Of a stretch of 64,000 nt of DNA, positions 38,201 through 62,000 are shown piece by piece; position 1 is the first letter of the stretch; every line of letters begins with the position of its first letter. The notes below the pieces were generated by a model. The model had not been told where the DNA came from and made no database searches. It saw only the letters and a program-made list of their open reading frames with translations. The stretch covers positions 1,426,001 through 1,490,000 of the forward strand of contig JAGVRJ010000002.1 in the NCBI GenBank assembly GCA_019059635.1, read 5' to 3'. Both the position numbers and the translations under genes were made by a program. The DNA is from Proales similis. Lineage: Eukaryota; Rotifera; Eurotatoria; Ploima; Proalidae.

Positions 38201-38961
38201 AAGAGCTCATTGCAAAGCTGAAAGCGATTTCCGACAATTTGCAGGGAGTCAAAATTGAGCCGATCGAATTCGAAAAAGACGACGACAACAACCTTCACAT
38301 GGACTTTATTGTGGCCTGCTCGAATCTGAGAGCTGAGAACTATGATATTGCACCAGCAGATCGACACAAGAGCAAACTGATTGCCGGTCGAATTATTCCG
38401 GCCATTGCTACCACTACCGCATTGATTGTCGGTCTTGACTGTATCGAGCTCTACAAGCTCATCCAAGGCCACGAGAAAATTGAATTCTATCGAAACACGT
38501 TTGTCAACTTGGCGCTGCCGTTCTTCGGCATGTCCGAGCCAGTGCCGCCCAAAAAGTCTAAATACTACGAGAACGAGTTCACTCTGTGGGACCGTTTCGA
38601 GGTTAAAGGCGAGATGACGCTCAAAGAATTCTTGGACTATTTCCAGCGCGAGCACAAGCTCGAGATCACAATGCTCTCTCAAGGCGTGACCATGCTTTAC
38701 GCTTTCTTCATGGACAAAAAGAAACTTGCCGAGCGACTTAACATGCCGTAAGTGGTTTAACTCAATCTAAAACCGTTAATTGAATGCGACAATTAATTGA
38801 CAAAATCTTTTGCTTGGCTCAGATTGTCCGAGGTTGTCAAGACGGTTAGCAAGAAAGACATTCCGAGTCATGTAGGCGCACTTGTCTTGGAAATGTGCTG
38901 CAACGACGCAGATGGTGAAGATCTCGAGGTGCCCTACGTCAAATATGTCCTGCCTAAATGA
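35263..38961 (+). CDS. UBA1: ubiquitin-activating enzyme E1
   Basis: Exons 35263-35439, 35701-38747 and 38823-38961; 1120 residues. UBA1 adenylates ubiquitin with ATP, forms a thioester on its cysteine and hands ubiquitin to E2 enzymes in cytosol and nucleus. Seen in order: a Ser-rich tail with a basic cluster (DNKRIKLED), the inactive adenylation half (SRQLYVLGHDAMRRMQAS), and the active adenylation half with FLIGAGAIGCEYLKNLAMMG. The catalytic cysteine is in SIPFCTLKNFPNAIEHTLQW (Cys695), followed by the C-terminal ubiquitin-fold domain ending YVLPK. The first intron (261 nt) splits off the disordered leader; the second lies near the C-terminus. The length exceeds vertebrate UBA1 (about 1058) because of the N-terminal extension. 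Confidence 0.96.
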
Positions 38962-39141: not shown

Positions 39142-39274
39142 AATCGTAAATTAACAGCTCCTAGCGCTCCATGGGAAATTTAAAACTGTCACGTAACTGT
39201 GCTCCGTTATAGCATTTGTTGCTAGGACGCTGATTAGGGGCTCGGGAATTGCTCAACTGGATGCAATTCTTGCC

Positions 39275-39282
39275 TATAAATA
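39275..39282 (+). promoter_or_regulatory. TATA box of structured repeat, copy 1
   Basis: TATAAATA, 33 bp before the conserved block begins at 39308. A GGAATTGCTCAA element at 39245-39256 is shared (one mismatch) with copy 2 and sits at about -60, resembling the PSE-plus-TATA layout of small nuclear RNA genes. Strand and polymerase are inferred. Confidence 0.45.
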
Positions 39283-39307
39283 CAGGCGTTCTAGGTTAGT
39301 CTAGCTC

Positions 39308-39609
39308 GTGGATCTTACACGAACATCTAACAACATGATGTTCGACTGGAGGGAGATTCTCGCCAGAATAATATAGTGTTTCGCAAATCCAAAAAGGCAT
39401 ACTTCGTAGCTTCTTGCCCTTTCTAGAGTAAGAACCCACCGGCTCAGCCAGCCTGGCCCAGATGCCACACTGCGATCCCACTCAAAATGGGCAAAGTGTT
39501 TGGGCCAGGAGCGGCAGGGCCACAGTTGCAGCCGGCTGCGCGAGGCTTGAAAACCAAATTGTGCCTCATCAGCCCGGATACATCTGTGGCATGCTAGCAT
39601 CGCTTGGCT
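39308..39609 (+). repeat. structured repeat copy 1, candidate non-coding RNA
   Basis: Lines up with the second copy 1060 bp downstream at constant offset. Parts: leader 39308-39360 (six differences from copy 2), segment 39361-39392 (32 nt, unrelated to copy 2), core 39393-39567 (identical by eye), tail to 39609 with scattered substitutions. The leader folds into an 8-bp hairpin (39320-39327 with 39337-39344). The core has a long hairpin: CCTGGCCCA (39452) with TGGGCCAGG (39501), inner ACACT/AGTGT and CCCA/TGGG, loop CTCAAAA. The 3' tail lacks the closing stem seen in copy 2, so this copy may be defective. No match to U1-U12, 7SK, SRP, RNase P/MRP or tRNA that I can recognise. A 13-residue reading frame starts in the leader and stops in the variable segment. 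Confidence 0.7.
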
Positions 39610-40300
39610 TCTCCGAACGATTTGATTTCTTCCTTTGAACATAAAAAATGACTAAAAATCAAATGCCTTGTTGAGCTTAATTCAGCAAATTTGAACCGAA
39701 CTCGAGGTCAAGACTGCTGTTAGAAGAAAACCGTGCTGAATGAAAAAGAATCGAAGCAAAATGATAGCTGCCTGATAGAAGCAAAAGTTTTGGTATATTT
39801 TGGACAAAGGTCTCAAATTGCTAGTCTTTGATAATCGAGATAGAAAAGCCCTTCAAATTGTTTCGTTGTGAGCTCAAGCTTTGTGGATAACAGCAAGCGC
39901 ATTTGTCAAAAGAAAGCAAAAGAGTATTCTGCGCTGAAATTCGACTCTTATAAAGTCCTGTTCGATTCCGGCAAGTTTTAACGGGTGATTTGATTCACTT
40001 CAGCGGGTGATTTGAATTTATTGGGCGATTGTGTAAAACTCAACAATTTGGTTCTATTAGGGCTGGGTAAGTCTTGGCCAGTCTTTTCGATAAAGCTAGC
40101 CAGGCCTGAATTTTAGGAAATTCTCATTTAATAAAAGCATGTAATAAAAAACCATTTTGTGAATAATGTATTTAGTTGGAGTTATGTGCAGTCATCGCTA
40201 TATGATATGAGCGAAATGTAGAGATAAGATTTGCCTTCAAATCAGAAGTTGACACAATCCATAAATAGAGAAAGCTAATTGGTTGTCTGGTTGCTAGCAA
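39610..40300. other. spacer between the two structured repeats
   Basis: AT-rich non-coding sequence. A GTTCGATTCC motif at about 39961, followed by TTTT, recalls a tRNA B box but no tRNA fold is possible around it. Confidence 0.4.
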
Positions 40301-40335
40301 GGAATTGCGCAATCAAGAGAAATAATCAAGCTGGG

Positions 40336-40343
40336 TATAAAAG
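40336..40343 (+). promoter_or_regulatory. TATA box of structured repeat, copy 2
   Basis: TATAAAAG, 32 bp before the conserved block at 40368. The upstream GGAATTGCGCAA at 40301-40312 matches the copy 1 element in 11 of 12 bases, while the sequence between is not conserved, suggesting retained promoter elements. Confidence 0.5.
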
Positions 40344-40367
40344 GGACGCGATTTGAGTTCACAATTT

Positions 40368-40699
40368 GTGGATCTTGCACGAACGTCTAAAACCATGGCG
40401 TTCGACTGGAGGGAGATTCTTAGCTATGCAAAGCAAAATTACCCTTAAAGTCAAAGGCATACTTCGTAGCTTCTTGCCCTTTCTAGAGTAAGAACCCACC
40501 GGCTCAGCCAGCCTGGCCCAGATGCCACACTGCGATCCCACTCAAAATGGGCAAAGTGTTTGGGCCAGGAGCGGCAGGGCCACAGTTGCAGCCGGCTGCG
40601 CGAGGCTTGAAAACCAAATTGTGCCTCGTCAGCCTGGATACATCTGTGGCATGCTAGCGTTGCTCGGCTGGTGGCAGTTCTTTGCGAAGTATGCTTTTT
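40368..40699 (+). repeat. structured repeat copy 2, candidate non-coding RNA
   Basis: Parts: leader 40368-40420, unrelated 32-nt segment 40421-40452, core 40453-40627 identical to copy 1, then a tail. The leader hairpin (40380-40387 with 40397-40404) carries a G-C pair where copy 1 has A-T, plus a G-T wobble: paired changes that keep the stem. The core start AAAGGCATACTTCG (40453-40466) pairs over 14 bp, one wobble, with CGAAGTATGCTTTT (40685-40698), closing the whole core. The stem ends in TTTTT, which could end RNA polymerase III transcription. Predicted transcript about 330 nt. An alternative reading is an element with 14-bp terminal inverted repeats. A 17-residue frame begins at the leader ATG and ends in the variable segment. 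Confidence 0.7.
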
Positions 40700-41104
40700 C
40701 GACTCGTAAGAGGTGATTCGGGTTTTGATAGCTGAGATTCTCATCTAGTTTGAATTTTTGGTGGCTTTTATTCCAAGAACTCGACTAAGATTGACTGTTG
40801 ATTGCATCATAATGAATGAACTCGAAATGATTACTTTTTACTATTGAGACCCAAATTATGTGAAATGAAAAAGAATCGAAATTTGAGCTCGTCCCTGAAT
40901 GAAGCTACTCGTCGTTTAGCCTATTTTCCCGCATCCAAATGCAGGTGAGCATTTCGTGGTGATGATCACGCAAAATATAGCGTCACGCTTCACAGAGTCA
41001 TGAAGCAGTCTGATCATAAATAAAGGCCTTATGAAATCAGAAGCAGAAAAAAAAAAGCTTAAAAGAGCCAGTCAAAGTAGCTAATTTAAGAGCCGAATTG
41101 AATC
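40700..41104. other. 5' flank of tandem-thioredoxin gene
   Basis: Non-coding; an A-rich run at about 41046-41056. No clear promoter element. Confidence 0.4.
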
Positions 41105-42584
41105 ATGTCTGTGAAACACGTCAGTAGTCAAAAAGAGTTCGATGAGTTGACCAGTGGCTTAGCTGTAGTTGACTTCTCTGCCGTCTGGTGTGGTTAGTAT
41201 GACTTGAATTGAAGGCCTCCTTCTCGTTGTGTATTTGCCTTCATTGTATATAGGACCGTGTCGACGAATTTCGCCAACTTTCAAAGAGCTCGCCAAAAAG
41301 TACAAAGGAGAGATAAACTTCATTCATGTGGACGTTGACGAAGGTGCAGAGAAGCTGCCGAACGAAGTCGTCAAGATAAGCAGTGTGCCAACGTTTCACT
41401 TTTACCAGAACGGAAAACTCGTCGATCAATTCAGCGGCGCCAACACGACTACTCTCAAGACCAAGATAGAAAAACTGCATAAAAGTGCGGAGGAAAAAGC
41501 AACGTCTAGCCGCGAGAGTGACGAAAACGAAGTGCAGGCGGCGCAAGAGCAGATCAACGAAGTCCTGCATGTAAACACGGCCGAAGAGTACAACAAACAA
41601 ATAGCCGATGGCAAGGTGGTAATCGACTTTTCTGCTCAGTGGTGCATGCCTTGCAAAATAGTTGCGCCGATCTATGCCGATTTGGCCGCACGAAATCCGA
41701 ATATCAAGTTCCTTAAAGTGGACATTGACGAGGCAGCCGAAGAGCTTGAGGAAGTGCTTGAAAACATTCGCGCAGTTCCGTCTTTCCTCTTTTATCGAAA
41801 CGGCGTTCAAGTAGACACAATGGCCGGCGCGAATCCTGCCTCGCTGAAGAAGAAAATCGACAAGCTCAATTCAGAAGAGTCGTCCGACACAGTTGAACAA
41901 GCCGATAAGAATCAGGAGGCGAAAAAGGAGAGCGAAAACCAAAAAGAGGAAAAGAGCACGGACGATGCTTCGTTCGGCGAAGGTGACAAGTCTAGCCCAG
42001 AAGGCGATGAGGAGGCCAAGTCCGACTCGCCAAAACAAGCTGAAAACCAAACACCTGATCCGAACGATGACGAATTGCTACAAGATAAAGATGACCAAGT
42101 GCCAGAGAAAGATGTCGAAGAAGAAGAACAAAACGAGCAAGAGCAAAGCCAAATTGACGAAAAAGAGGAAAAAATGGACCAAGAGCCGGAAGTTAAGAAG
42201 GAGCAGTCTGACGATGAACAAATTGCCACTAAAATGGATGTTGACGAAAAACGTGAAGACGCACCAGAGCCGATCGAAAATGCCGAGAGTGAAAATGTTG
42301 AAGAGACAAACAAGCAGCAAGTGGAGAGCGGCCGCAATTCTGAAGAAGCAAACGATGATCATGATGATGCGGATGAAGCCACAGTTCATGCTGAGAAATC
42401 TGACTCGGCGATGCCTGAACAGAGCGAAGAAGGCAATGACCAGAAGAAAGAAGCTGACACTGAAGAGGCATCCGTGTCCAAATCAGATGAGACTACGAAA
42501 AAAGACGAAAAGCCAAAACGGGACGGACATCCCAAGTGTTCGAGCAAAAAACCCAAAAGGGCAAGCAACGCCAAAAATGACTGA
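41105..42584 (+). CDS. tandem thioredoxin-domain protein with long acidic tail
   Basis: Exons 41105-41192 and 41254-42584 (61-nt intron inside the active-site codons, phase 1); 472 residues. Domain 1 (about 1-105) has the active site WCGPC at 28-32 with the cis-proline motif SVPTFHFY. Domain 2 (about 132-235) has WCMPC at 159-163 with AVPSFLFY. Both CxxC pairs are intact, so disulfide reductase activity is likely. No signal peptide is seen, so the protein is cytosolic or nuclear. Residues from about 240 to the end are almost entirely Glu, Asp, Lys, Ser and Gln, apparently disordered, ending in a basic stretch (KKPKRASNAKND). Standard thioredoxins are about 105 residues and single-domain; the duplication plus acidic tail is not an arrangement I can name. 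Confidence 0.88.
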
Positions 42585-59000: not shown

Positions 59001-62000
59001 GCATTCATCTGATCGCCCAGCTGCAACTCTGTGAGGAGCACATTGTCACTCTCGCGTACCGATATTTTGTTATCGCTCAGCGTCTTATAATCATAATAGT
59101 TATCACCGATATCTTCCGTATCCTCCGATCCATTCATCGCAGACATTGCAGACTCGCTTATCTTGCCTCCCTATGTCACTATGTCTCCATACCAGTGTCT
59201 AAATTATTCAAGCTGAACAGTAGTCTTGCGTCCCGTTCACAAACACTAATAATGACAATGACAACTAGTCGCCCAAACAAAATTAAAACCTCAAATGTTC
59301 GCCTCGTCCGATTGGCCGAGACAGCGACGCTTACAAACTTTCTTATGTTTGCACGAACTTACGCTTTTTAATGCTCGCCAAACACAAGCGCGCAGAATGT
59401 TTATCAATTCAGCCAATTAGAGCTCTATTCTGCTCCAAAGCTGTCTAACTGTGGCCATGCTCAAGCGATCTACTGGCCGAGTCGAAGGCCGCGTGAGTAT
59501 CCACAATTGGAACTATCCGCGACTTGTTTGACTTGAATTAATTAATACTGGAACAGAAACTGAAGCTGTCTGAGCCAGTTGGTCAGCGAAAATCAAAGGT
59601 AGTCGGCCGGCTCGGCCTGAACTTGACCCGTCAAATACCGAACGTATTATCTTGTTTGCTCGCCATCGCACCCTTGTGCTTTCTCCTTCACGCTCATGCA
59701 GCCGTGCAACAAGTCGTTTGGTAAATAAAACCGCGCCAGCGTCTTTATTTTGGCCCAGCGTGAGTGTGCACGTTAAATGAGGCCTCTGATCGCCGTTGAA
59801 CATAGAAAGCGATGTGCGCCTAGTGAAACCACGCGTCTTAGGACAAACGGATTGACCGCCTATGCAAATATCTTTCATTCAGAAAACTTCATATAATACG
59901 CGTTCCCTTTTCACATTCACACCCTTAGACAAAACGGAGGTCGAAGCAAGACGTCTCCAAAGGAAAAACGCTCGAGAGCTTTCTGGGACAAAAATTTGCG
60001 TTTTGTTGACTCGATGGTCGTAAAAGAGTTTGTTTAGGAAGAGAATTGAAAATAGATTATTAAAGAATCGTAAATTGGGACGAATTTAAAAAAAAAAAAA
60101 CATTTCCATCATTCTACTCGCTGGCTTGCCTGACCTCATTGTCGTGAGTATCGTACTCGCTTGGTTAAACTGAACGAGAACAGCATAGAGCTAATGCTTT
60201 TATTTACTTATCACTAACTTATCCAATGCGATGAAGTTTGAATTTTTAGCTTCTAATCAAAGTAACAACGCCGTCAATACCCAATTAGCTTATTCTAATA
60301 CGCAGCGTGGCAAGATTATTATATTATCTCTCTTAAGCTCTATTTCATTATAACAAACAAAGATCGTGACAAGCACGCAGTTTGTTCGATCAGTAGAATA
60401 AAGTCAATTCGTCTAAGTTCGAATACGCTTACGCTCATACGGCTTAAGAGTTAGCGAGATGACAAAAAATGCCGAAACTCGGGATCGAACCAAGGACCTT
60501 TAGATCTTCAGTCTAACGCTCTCCCAACTGAGCTATTTCGGCTCTTGACATTCGCTCAGCAGATGAGGAGAGTTGACTCGTAGAAGAACGCCAAGCAAAT
60601 CCCGTGCAAAAAATAAAAATATTAATTTACCGTATGAAAAATGGATCCGCATCTTTCATTCTATCCAACAGCTCGGCCAACGAGTTCTGATTGCAAAAGT
60701 AATTTATCTCGTTTGCTTTTATTCGTGTCATCGGATTTTAGAAATAGTTACCCTATAATGCCATGTCACAGTGATTTGATTCCATTTGTCTTTTGGCAAT
60801 GTGTTCATTTTTAGAGTTTGACTAAATCGAACGGATATGCATTCAATTTCGATTATTTTAAATCTCTGCGCCAAGTGCTTACATTCTTTTCTTAAGACTT
60901 TTCGCCTTCTTTTGTGTAAGGCTTTCTCTCGGGCGTTTGATATCCACTGTTTTGGGACGAAAAGAAATGCTCGAACTGGACATTATGTTGCTACTTGATC
61001 TAGAAATTGAGCCCGATTTGGTCTGCTCGGCTGCAAACAAATTTGATAGCAGCTGAATTGAGCTCTTTTTCATGCAGTCGATCAGGTTCGAGCTTAAGTT
61101 GTCGCGATTCTTCTCTAAGAATCCTGCAGCGTTGTAGACCACCTAAATCAAATGGTTCTATTCTTGTTCTCAATTGGCTCGAGACCACGTCAAAGGTTAC
61201 TTTTCCGGCGTAGTGAAGTATTCCAAACGATAGACTGTCACCTTTCGGCCTCGAATAACGATTCGAGTTTTTGAAATGCTGATGGAATTTTTGCACTAAT
61301 GAAGTGTCCGTCGCTTTGGGAAACTTTGACTCTTCGTCGAGAAGAGCAAACACTCCCAGAGGCTGTTGTATAGAAGTAGTTAATTCTAAGTACATGAACG
61401 ATGTAGACGAAAGCTCGCAATTCACTCACACTCATGAAAACCTCGATGAGGTCTTCGTTGTTCTGAAATTCGATCGAAGCAAACTGAATTCCTTCCAAGT
61501 AGTACTCTTCTTCCTCTTGTAAGAAGATGTGCTCGTTGAAGTAAAACTGGAGATGCTCATTGGCCACATTGATGCACAACTGTTCAAAGCTGTTATCCTC
61601 GAAGTTTTCAAATCCGGACATGTCGAGGATTCCAATTGCAGGAAAGCTGTCCATTCTTGCTCTGGAGAAAACAATTTATCAAACGGTGTGGAAAAAAGAA
61701 GTGTTAGGAAAAAATGCCGAAACTCGGGATCGAACCAAGGACCTTTAGATCTTCAGTCTAACGCTCTCCCAACTGAGCTATTTCGGCTCATGACAGCATT
61801 CATTCTATTTGGCATTATTTACTTGACAATATTATTGGGCTGAAGAAGTTCATTTATCTGACGCACTATCCAGCCAAAGAGCCGCTCGTACAACGCTTTG
61901 GCCAGCGCATCTCGACAATCGTTTGCCTGGTCAATATTTTTAAGGCTGACCACTCGTTCGCCTGAAAATTGCCTTCAATTCGGTTCGTTTTAAAATCAAA

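What the first reader, a model, noticed from the sequence alone, without database searches (positions are those of the whole stretch)
39308..40699. Repeat pair with a fixed-length 32-nt hypervariable segment between conserved blocks
The two copies align at a constant offset of 1060. A 53-nt leader (47 of 53 identical) is followed by exactly 32 nt with near-random identity (about 9 of 32), then a 175-nt core identical by eye. Equal length with no identity, between conserved flanks, is not what neutral decay gives. It suggests a family whose members carry an exchangeable or guide-like segment, or strong selection on the flanks only. No known RNA family fits.
Basis: partly seen in the sequence, partly recalled or inferred. 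Interest (0 to 1): 0.85.

Follow-up and report, generated by a model that had tools for sequence, protein, structure and literature searches.

The report
Tandem pair of orphan structured-RNA genes
Two side-by-side copies of what looks like an unannotated gene for a folded RNA, in the genome of a tiny rotifer, share a start region and a folded core but differ completely in a 32-base linker between them, which is better explained as a loose spacer plus recent copy-to-copy repair than as an exchangeable guide.

Summary
At offset 1060, leader 39308-39360 is 47/53 identical, 39361-39392 is 9/32, and core 39393-39609 is 212/217, its first 175 bases identical. Searches find only these two copies in the 32.7-Mb genome, which by contig statistics is the rotifer Proales similis. 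Each leader starts 32-33 nt after a TATAAA box. The leader is predicted to form an 8-bp hairpin; 3 of its 6 differences fall in the stem and keep pairing, one pair by a double change; 2 lie in the loop. Copy 2 folds far better than shuffles (z -5.9), its core closed by a 17-bp stem that copy 1 lacks. No Rfam match covers the pair. Best reading: an old tandem duplication of a TATA-driven, probably Pol II, structured ncRNA gene of unknown function; the 32 nt is an unconstrained linker and copy 1's core was recently overwritten from copy 2. Neither segment recurs in the genome at <=3 mismatches; antisense words in the window are at chance. With two members, equal length is weak evidence (4-24% by chance). 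A guide role is unsupported but not excluded.

The parts
39245..39256 (+). GGAATTGCTCAA, upstream motif shared 11 of 12 with copy 2
   Evidence: best local match between the two 130-nt upstream stretches; a fraction 0.03 of 2000 shuffles reach its score
39275..39282 (+). TATA box of copy 1 (TATAAATA), 33 nt upstream of the leader
   Evidence: TATAAA occurs 12 times on the + strand of the 64-kb window
39308..39360 (+). leader of copy 1 (inferred transcript 5' end), includes predicted hairpin 39320-39344
   Evidence: 47/53 identical to copy 2; hairpin with one compensatory pair
39361..39392 (+). 32-nt divergent segment of copy 1
   Evidence: 9/32 identical to copy 2; single place in genome at <=3 mismatches
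39393..39609 (+). core of copy 1; 39393-39567 identical to copy 2; no good 3' partner for the closing stem
40130..40148 (+). two AATAAA hexamers (40130, 40143), possible poly(A) signals of a copy 1 transcript
   Evidence: three AATAAA in 39150-41104 are not clearly above background (48 on the + strand of the window)
40301..40312 (+). GGAATTGCGCAA, upstream motif of copy 2
40336..40342 (+). TATA box of copy 2 (TATAAAA), 32 nt upstream of the leader
40368..40420 (+). leader of copy 2, includes predicted hairpin 40380-40404
40421..40452 (+). 32-nt divergent segment of copy 2
   Evidence: single place in genome at <=3 mismatches
40453..40699 (+). core of copy 2 with its predicted 17-bp closing stem (5' arm from 40453, 3' arm running into the T5 run 40695-40699)
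   Evidence: z -5.67 on + strand against -4.33 on - strand; stem energy not reached by any of 2000 shuffled tails
41019..41024 (+). AATAAA, possible poly(A) signal of a copy 2 transcript

Best explanation
Two tandem, same-strand paralogues of an unannotated structured non-coding RNA gene lie between a gene for ubiquitin-activating enzyme E1 (Uba1) and one for a thioredoxin-domain protein. Each is driven by its own TATA promoter, probably by RNA polymerase II. The transcript starts with the 53-nt leader (hairpin plus a conserved 3' strand), runs through a 32-nt linker with no sequence constraint, and then folds into a branched core. Shown by computation: the anatomy, the copy number, TATA boxes at -33/-32, pairing-preserving changes in the leader hairpin, predicted core folding, and absence of Rfam or protein relatives. 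Inferred: transcription; Pol II; that the duplication is old (upstream, linker and tail are at background identity while leader and core tail keep 88-89%); and a recent gene conversion that overwrote 39393-39567 of copy 1 with copy 2 sequence. The direction follows because the 5' arm of the closing stem is identical in both copies, but only copy 2 has its 3' partner. The linker's sharp right edge against the core and its equal length then need no special mechanism: conversion cannot run past the end of homology, and a spacer between two helices may be under length constraint only. The molecular role of the RNA is not known; the likeliest is a lineage-specific regulatory or scaffold RNA acting through the folded core.
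For: Only two copies of whole, leader and core found in the genome. TATAAA at -33 and -32, a hexamer that occurs 12 times on the + strand of 64 kb. Leader hairpin: 3 stem changes, none breaking a pair, one double compensatory; simulated chance of no broken pair plus at least one compensatory pair 0.020, and 0.008 with at least 3 stem changes as well. The leader 5' end can pair with the core over 10 bp in both copies, its one difference there being A-U to G-U; against shuffled leader ends p 0.009 and 0.055. Full copy 2 z -5.90; its core z -5.67 on + against -4.33 on -. Closing stem -22.2 kcal/mol in copy 2, 0 of 2000 shuffles. Clustered identity, 0 of 100,000. For Pol II rather than Pol III: the U6 and MRP genes of this genome both carry GTTACC at -65 and a TATA-like box at -31, and neither copy has GTTACC even with one mismatch; copy 1 has no run of four T before 39788. 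One minus-strand ORF of copy 1 and one plus-strand ORF of copy 2 have no protein relative.
Against: No transcript data were available. There are only two sequences, so covariation is one compensatory pair. Copy 1 folds only modestly better than shuffles (z -2.82 and -2.98), as do the inner 174 nt of either copy (z -2.74 and -2.31), so much of copy 2's excess comes from the closing stem. The two predicted architectures (leader paired to core; core closed on itself) compete: forcing the leader-core helices in full copy 2 costs 22 kcal/mol, and the second leader-core helix is no better than shuffles (p 0.29 and 0.28). The promoter argument against Pol III is limited: RNase P and SRP genes, which are Pol III genes in other animals (recalled), show neither GTTACC nor the TATA-like words in the 120 nt before their model match, and copy 2 does have a T5 run at the end of its stem. 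Strong constraint alone, without conversion, could also give the identical 175 nt.
Confidence: 0.55

Rival explanations
1. Short-peptide or 5'-UTR mRNAs: the leader holds an AUG-started ORF (MMFDWREILARII in copy 1, MAFDWREILSYAKQNYP in copy 2), or the core is coding, and the divergent segment is the diverging end of a short peptide.
For: In both copies an ATG is followed by one differing codon and then by the same TTC GAC TGG AGG GAG ATT CT(N); copy 2's start codon lies in a good context (recalled rule); in one + frame of the core tail 3 of 5 differences are silent.
Against: The leader ORFs differ in length (13 and 17 codons) and both end inside the divergent segment; the leader differences fit a hairpin's stem and loop; none of six frames makes all 5 core-tail differences silent, the best having 2 amino-acid changes; no homologue of the copy 1 minus-strand ORF or the copy 2 plus-strand ORF (candidates needed three shared 5-residue words, so distant relatives would be missed).
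Confidence: 0.15
2. Guide-like RNA family: leader and core are a scaffold that presents a 32-nt segment which pairs with a target, different in each member.
For: Exactly 32 nt in both, no identity above chance, between conserved blocks; equal length by chance 4-24% over nine parameter settings.
Against: Two members only; no second match, on either strand, at 3 or fewer mismatches in 32.7 Mb; longest antisense words in the window (10 and 11 nt, p 0.68 and 0.28) and in MRP, RNase P, SRP and U6 RNAs (6 and 7 nt, p 0.99 and 0.67) are at chance; part of the segment is predicted to pair with the RNA's own leader in copy 2 (p 0.027) but not convincingly in copy 1 (p 0.274). Short matches to rRNA or to the rest of the genome were not tested.
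Confidence: 0.07
3. Non-functional relics: a partial duplication followed by decay and a chance conversion tract, with the leader kept alike by chance or by an earlier conversion.
For: Copy 1 lacks the 3' arm and folds less well; no expression evidence.
Against: Both TATA boxes sit at nearly the same distance while the sequence around them is unrelated; pairing-preserving leader changes. Copy 1 alone may well be a decaying copy.
Confidence: 0.13
4. A very diverged known RNA: 7SK, telomerase RNA or a primary microRNA transcript.
For: No 7SK over the Rfam cut-off in this genome with the arthropod model, so a slot is open; copy 2's hairpin loop region holds CTAAAACC, a telomere C-strand 8-mer; the core hairpin GCCACAG...CTGTGGC is 72 nt with -37.0 kcal/mol in copy 2 and -31.8 in copy 1, of the size of a microRNA precursor.
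Against: The only Rfam match to copy 2 at E<=10 is GRIK4_3p_UTR, E 2.1; the telomeric 8-mer is absent from copy 1, and a fraction 0.086 of shuffles of copy 2 hold such a word; the upstream element of U6 and MRP is absent. Conservation runs over leader plus 217 nt, more than a microRNA hairpin needs. MRP, RNase P, SRP and U6 are accounted for elsewhere.
Confidence: 0.1

Closest known systems
TATA-driven Pol II non-coding RNA genes in tandem pairs (general knowledge)
   Same: own TATA box, no lasting ORF, structured RNA, tandem paralogues kept alike by gene conversion
   Different: no sequence relative found in Rfam or elsewhere in the genome; transcription not shown
RNase MRP / RNase P / SRP / U6 RNA genes
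   Same: about 300 nt and strongly folded, like MRP, RNase P and SRP RNAs; a TATA box about 31-33 nt upstream, as in U6 and MRP here
   Different: members over the cut-off were found elsewhere in the genome; the GTTACC element at -65 of U6 and MRP is absent
Spliced leader RNAs (known from rotifers by recall; papers seen only in search listings)
   Same: a short 5' leader followed by structured RNA
   Different: the leader is found only at these two places, and the inferred RNA of about 300 nt or more is well above SL RNA length (recalled); trans-splicing was not tested

Membership tests
Any Rfam 15 family | score above gathering cut-off | tested here: not met
   whole window: only two tRNA-Phe; 40330-40730 at E<=10: one match, GRIK4_3p_UTR, E 2.1, 15 bits against cut-off 38; copy 1 was not scanned at the relaxed threshold
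7SK | match to the arthropod 7SK model RF01052 | tested here: not met
   the two matches in the genome at E<=10 lie on other contigs, below cut-off; the vertebrate-type model RF00100 was not run genome-wide (it should be in the library, by recall)
Pol III type 3 snRNA-like gene | upstream element plus TATA as in U6/MRP of the same genome | tested here: not met
   TATA present, GTTACC at -65 absent in both copies; RNase P and SRP of this genome lack it too
Pol III type 3 snRNA-like gene | T-run terminator at the 3' end | tested here: inconclusive
   copy 2 has T5 at 40695; copy 1 has no run of four T or more before 39788
Telomerase RNA | template of more than one telomere repeat | tested here: not met
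   no common telomere C-strand 9-mer in either copy; one 8-mer in copy 2 only
Spacer/guide RNA family | several members with different segments between constant flanks | tested here: not met
   two copies only
Spacer/guide RNA family | segment complementary to a target | tested here: inconclusive
   none at <=3 mismatches over 32 nt genome-wide; short matches tested in the window and four ncRNAs only
Transposable element with terminal inverted repeats | multiple dispersed copies | tested here: not met
   two tandem copies, despite 14-nt inverted ends around copy 2's core
Structured ncRNA gene | compensatory base changes | tested here: met
   one double change plus one wobble change in the leader hairpin; only two sequences
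Structured ncRNA gene | transcription | not testable with these tools
   no RNA data held

The most novel reading that the evidence does not exclude
A rotifer-specific structured RNA family in which a folded scaffold (leader hairpin, leader-core helices) holds out a loop of fixed 32-nt length and free, paralogue-specific sequence that selects different RNA or protein partners in the two copies, while gene conversion keeps the scaffold uniform.
Probability: 0.05. Interest if true: 0.8.

Novelty: new member of a known kind. Interest (0 to 1): 0.36.

Why it matters
If transcribed, this is an orphan structured RNA gene pair in a very small rotifer genome, in a group whose structured RNAs seem little catalogued (my impression from the listings of two literature searches). 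It is also a neat case of how gene conversion between tandem RNA genes can imitate a 'constant scaffold, variable guide' layout. The practical lesson for genome scans is that sharp identity borders between two copies need a third copy before a guide is inferred.

Tried and rejected
A mite origin was my first guess from genome size. It was dropped when the PBX/exd-like protein of the window matched a Brachionus calyciflorus protein at 81% and the contig statistics matched Proales similis.

Telomerase RNA was considered because of CTAAAACC in copy 2's leader. Rejected: not in copy 1, and 0.086 of shuffles hold such a word.

A viral or bacterial origin of the core was tested with one exact 22-base word: no match in viral contigs or genome contigs; a blastn of 371 bases against plasmids gave none. 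Exact-word scans are weak tests.

Insertion of a repeat as the cause of copy 1's lost 3' end: the stretch 39600-40367 has no second match in the genome at E<=0.01, so no repeat was found.

Covariance models of the leader and of the inner core were built for a genome-wide search, which the tool does not offer for this genome. Neither model was used further.

A sigma-70/terminator scan is not informative for an animal genome and showed nothing above shuffles.

Full report
Observation. The layout is as reported. The copies lie at offset 1060: leader 39308-39360 and 40368-40420 (47/53), a 32-nt segment with 9/32, and a 217-nt core with 212/217, of which the first 175 are identical and the last 42 carry five transitions. 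Outside these blocks, identity at this offset is at background. The clean run is not chance (0 of 100,000 placements).

Where it is. The genome held has 32,716,893 bases in 15 contigs. Contig 1 is 3,837,811 bases and contig 6 is 2,428,301, the largest contig and the N50 given for Proales similis in PMC11954553 (passages seen; that table gives 32,722,929 bases in 15 contigs, slightly more than here). The PBX/exd-like protein of the window is 81% identical to an unnamed Brachionus calyciflorus protein. The pair sits between a Uba1-like gene ending at 38961 and a thioredoxin-domain gene starting at about 41105, same strand (these two gene names come from recall on reading the translations, not from a search).

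Copy number. Searches with the whole (371 nt, E<=0.001), leader (65 nt, E<=10) and core (256 nt, E<=10) each return the two places only; very diverged relatives would be missed. A 20-nt leader word at <=3 mismatches gives the two copies and two minus-strand sites, against 1 and 2 for the reversed control. The two 32-nt segments each return only themselves.

Promoters. TATAAA lies 33 and 32 nt before the leader start; the hexamer occurs 12 times on the + strand of the 64-kb window. A 12-mer, GGAATTGCKCAA, is shared upstream (p 0.03); it resembles a C/EBP site (recalled). In this genome U6 and MRP have GTTACC at -65 and a TATA-like box at -31; both copies lack GTTACC. With no run of four T in copy 1 before 39788 this favours Pol II, but not firmly: RNase P and SRP also lack GTTACC and the TATA-like words in the 120 nt examined, and copy 2 has a T5 run at 40695. 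AATAAA follows each copy (40130, 40143; 41019), but three in 1955 bases is not clearly above the window's background (48 on the + strand).

RNA structure. The leader hairpin is predicted from each copy alone. Of six leader differences, three are in its stem and none breaks a pair: 39325/39339 is A-U to G-C, and 39338 turns U-A into U-G; two are in the loop (39331, 39333); the sixth, 39317, keeps a possible leader-core pair (A-U to G-U). The simulated chance of no break plus a compensatory pair is 0.020. Copy 2 folds with z -5.90 and its core alone with -5.67, against -4.33 on the opposite strand. A 17-bp stem closes copy 2's core (0 of 2000 shuffles); the same arm has no good partner after copy 1 (p 0.10). 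Against this, copy 1 scores z -2.8 and -3.0 and the inner 174 nt z -2.7 and -2.3.

The alignment fold also offers a leader-core architecture: leader 1-11 with core GTAAGAACCCAC, and leader CTGGAGGG with core CCCTTTCTAG, which would make the 32 nt a loop region. Support is mixed: p 0.009 and 0.055 for the first helix, 0.29 and 0.28 for the second. In full copy 2 the closing stem wins by 22 kcal/mol; in copy 1 the difference is 1.3, and copy 1 cut at 39609 takes the first helix unforced.

Why the 32 nt looks as it does. Promoters, linker and 3' tails are at background identity, while leader (89%) and core tail (88%) are not, so the duplication is probably old and the conserved parts constrained. 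The identical 175 nt, including its predicted loops, fit a recent conversion tract. Its left edge coincides with the end of homology, as it must. Copy 2 is the likely donor, since only there does the closing stem pair. Equal length is then the sole oddity, with probability 0.037-0.24 over nine settings of divergence and indel rate (assumed values).

Guide test. Longest sense and antisense words in the window, and antisense words in MRP, RNase P, SRP and U6, are at chance.

Coding test. No frame makes the five core-tail differences all silent, and two ORF searches found nothing.

Literature. Searches for Proales similis with genome (10 of 15 listed) and with RNA-seq (5 of 5), for rotifer non-coding RNA structure (15 of 27) and for rotifer spliced leader RNA (10 of 26) showed no title or abstract start about this locus. 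Only passages of PMC11954553 and PMC12133305 were seen beyond the listings. Subscription papers are not covered. A query for 7SK in lophotrochozoa gave no papers.

Verdict.

Noticed in passing
L015, L019, L023, L025-L028, L030-L032, first 1500 bases each (10 of 15 contig starts; L017 reads N, and L021, L024, L029, L033 were left out of the count as short, degenerate or not telomeric): Telomeric ends are irregular: C-strand units C2TA3 (739), C3TA3 (351), C2TA4 (141), C3TA4 (79), that is TTTAGG with variable T and G runs, perhaps from telomerase slippage on a short template.
   Followed up: partly
60464-60550 and 61709-61795: Two minus-strand tRNA-Phe(GAA) genes in 87-nt copies 99% identical, 1245 nt apart.
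   Followed up: no
L006 and L003, 65 nt upstream of U6 and RNase MRP: Both genes carry GTTACC at -65 and a TATA-like box at -31, a candidate upstream element of rotifer Pol III snRNA-type promoters; RNase P (L004) and SRP (L005) do not show it.
   Followed up: partly
genome G000: No 7SK RNA over the Rfam cut-off with the arthropod model.
   Followed up: no
41105-42584: Protein with what read as two thioredoxin-like domains (by recall, no domain search) and a long acidic, lysine/glutamate-rich tail.
   Followed up: no
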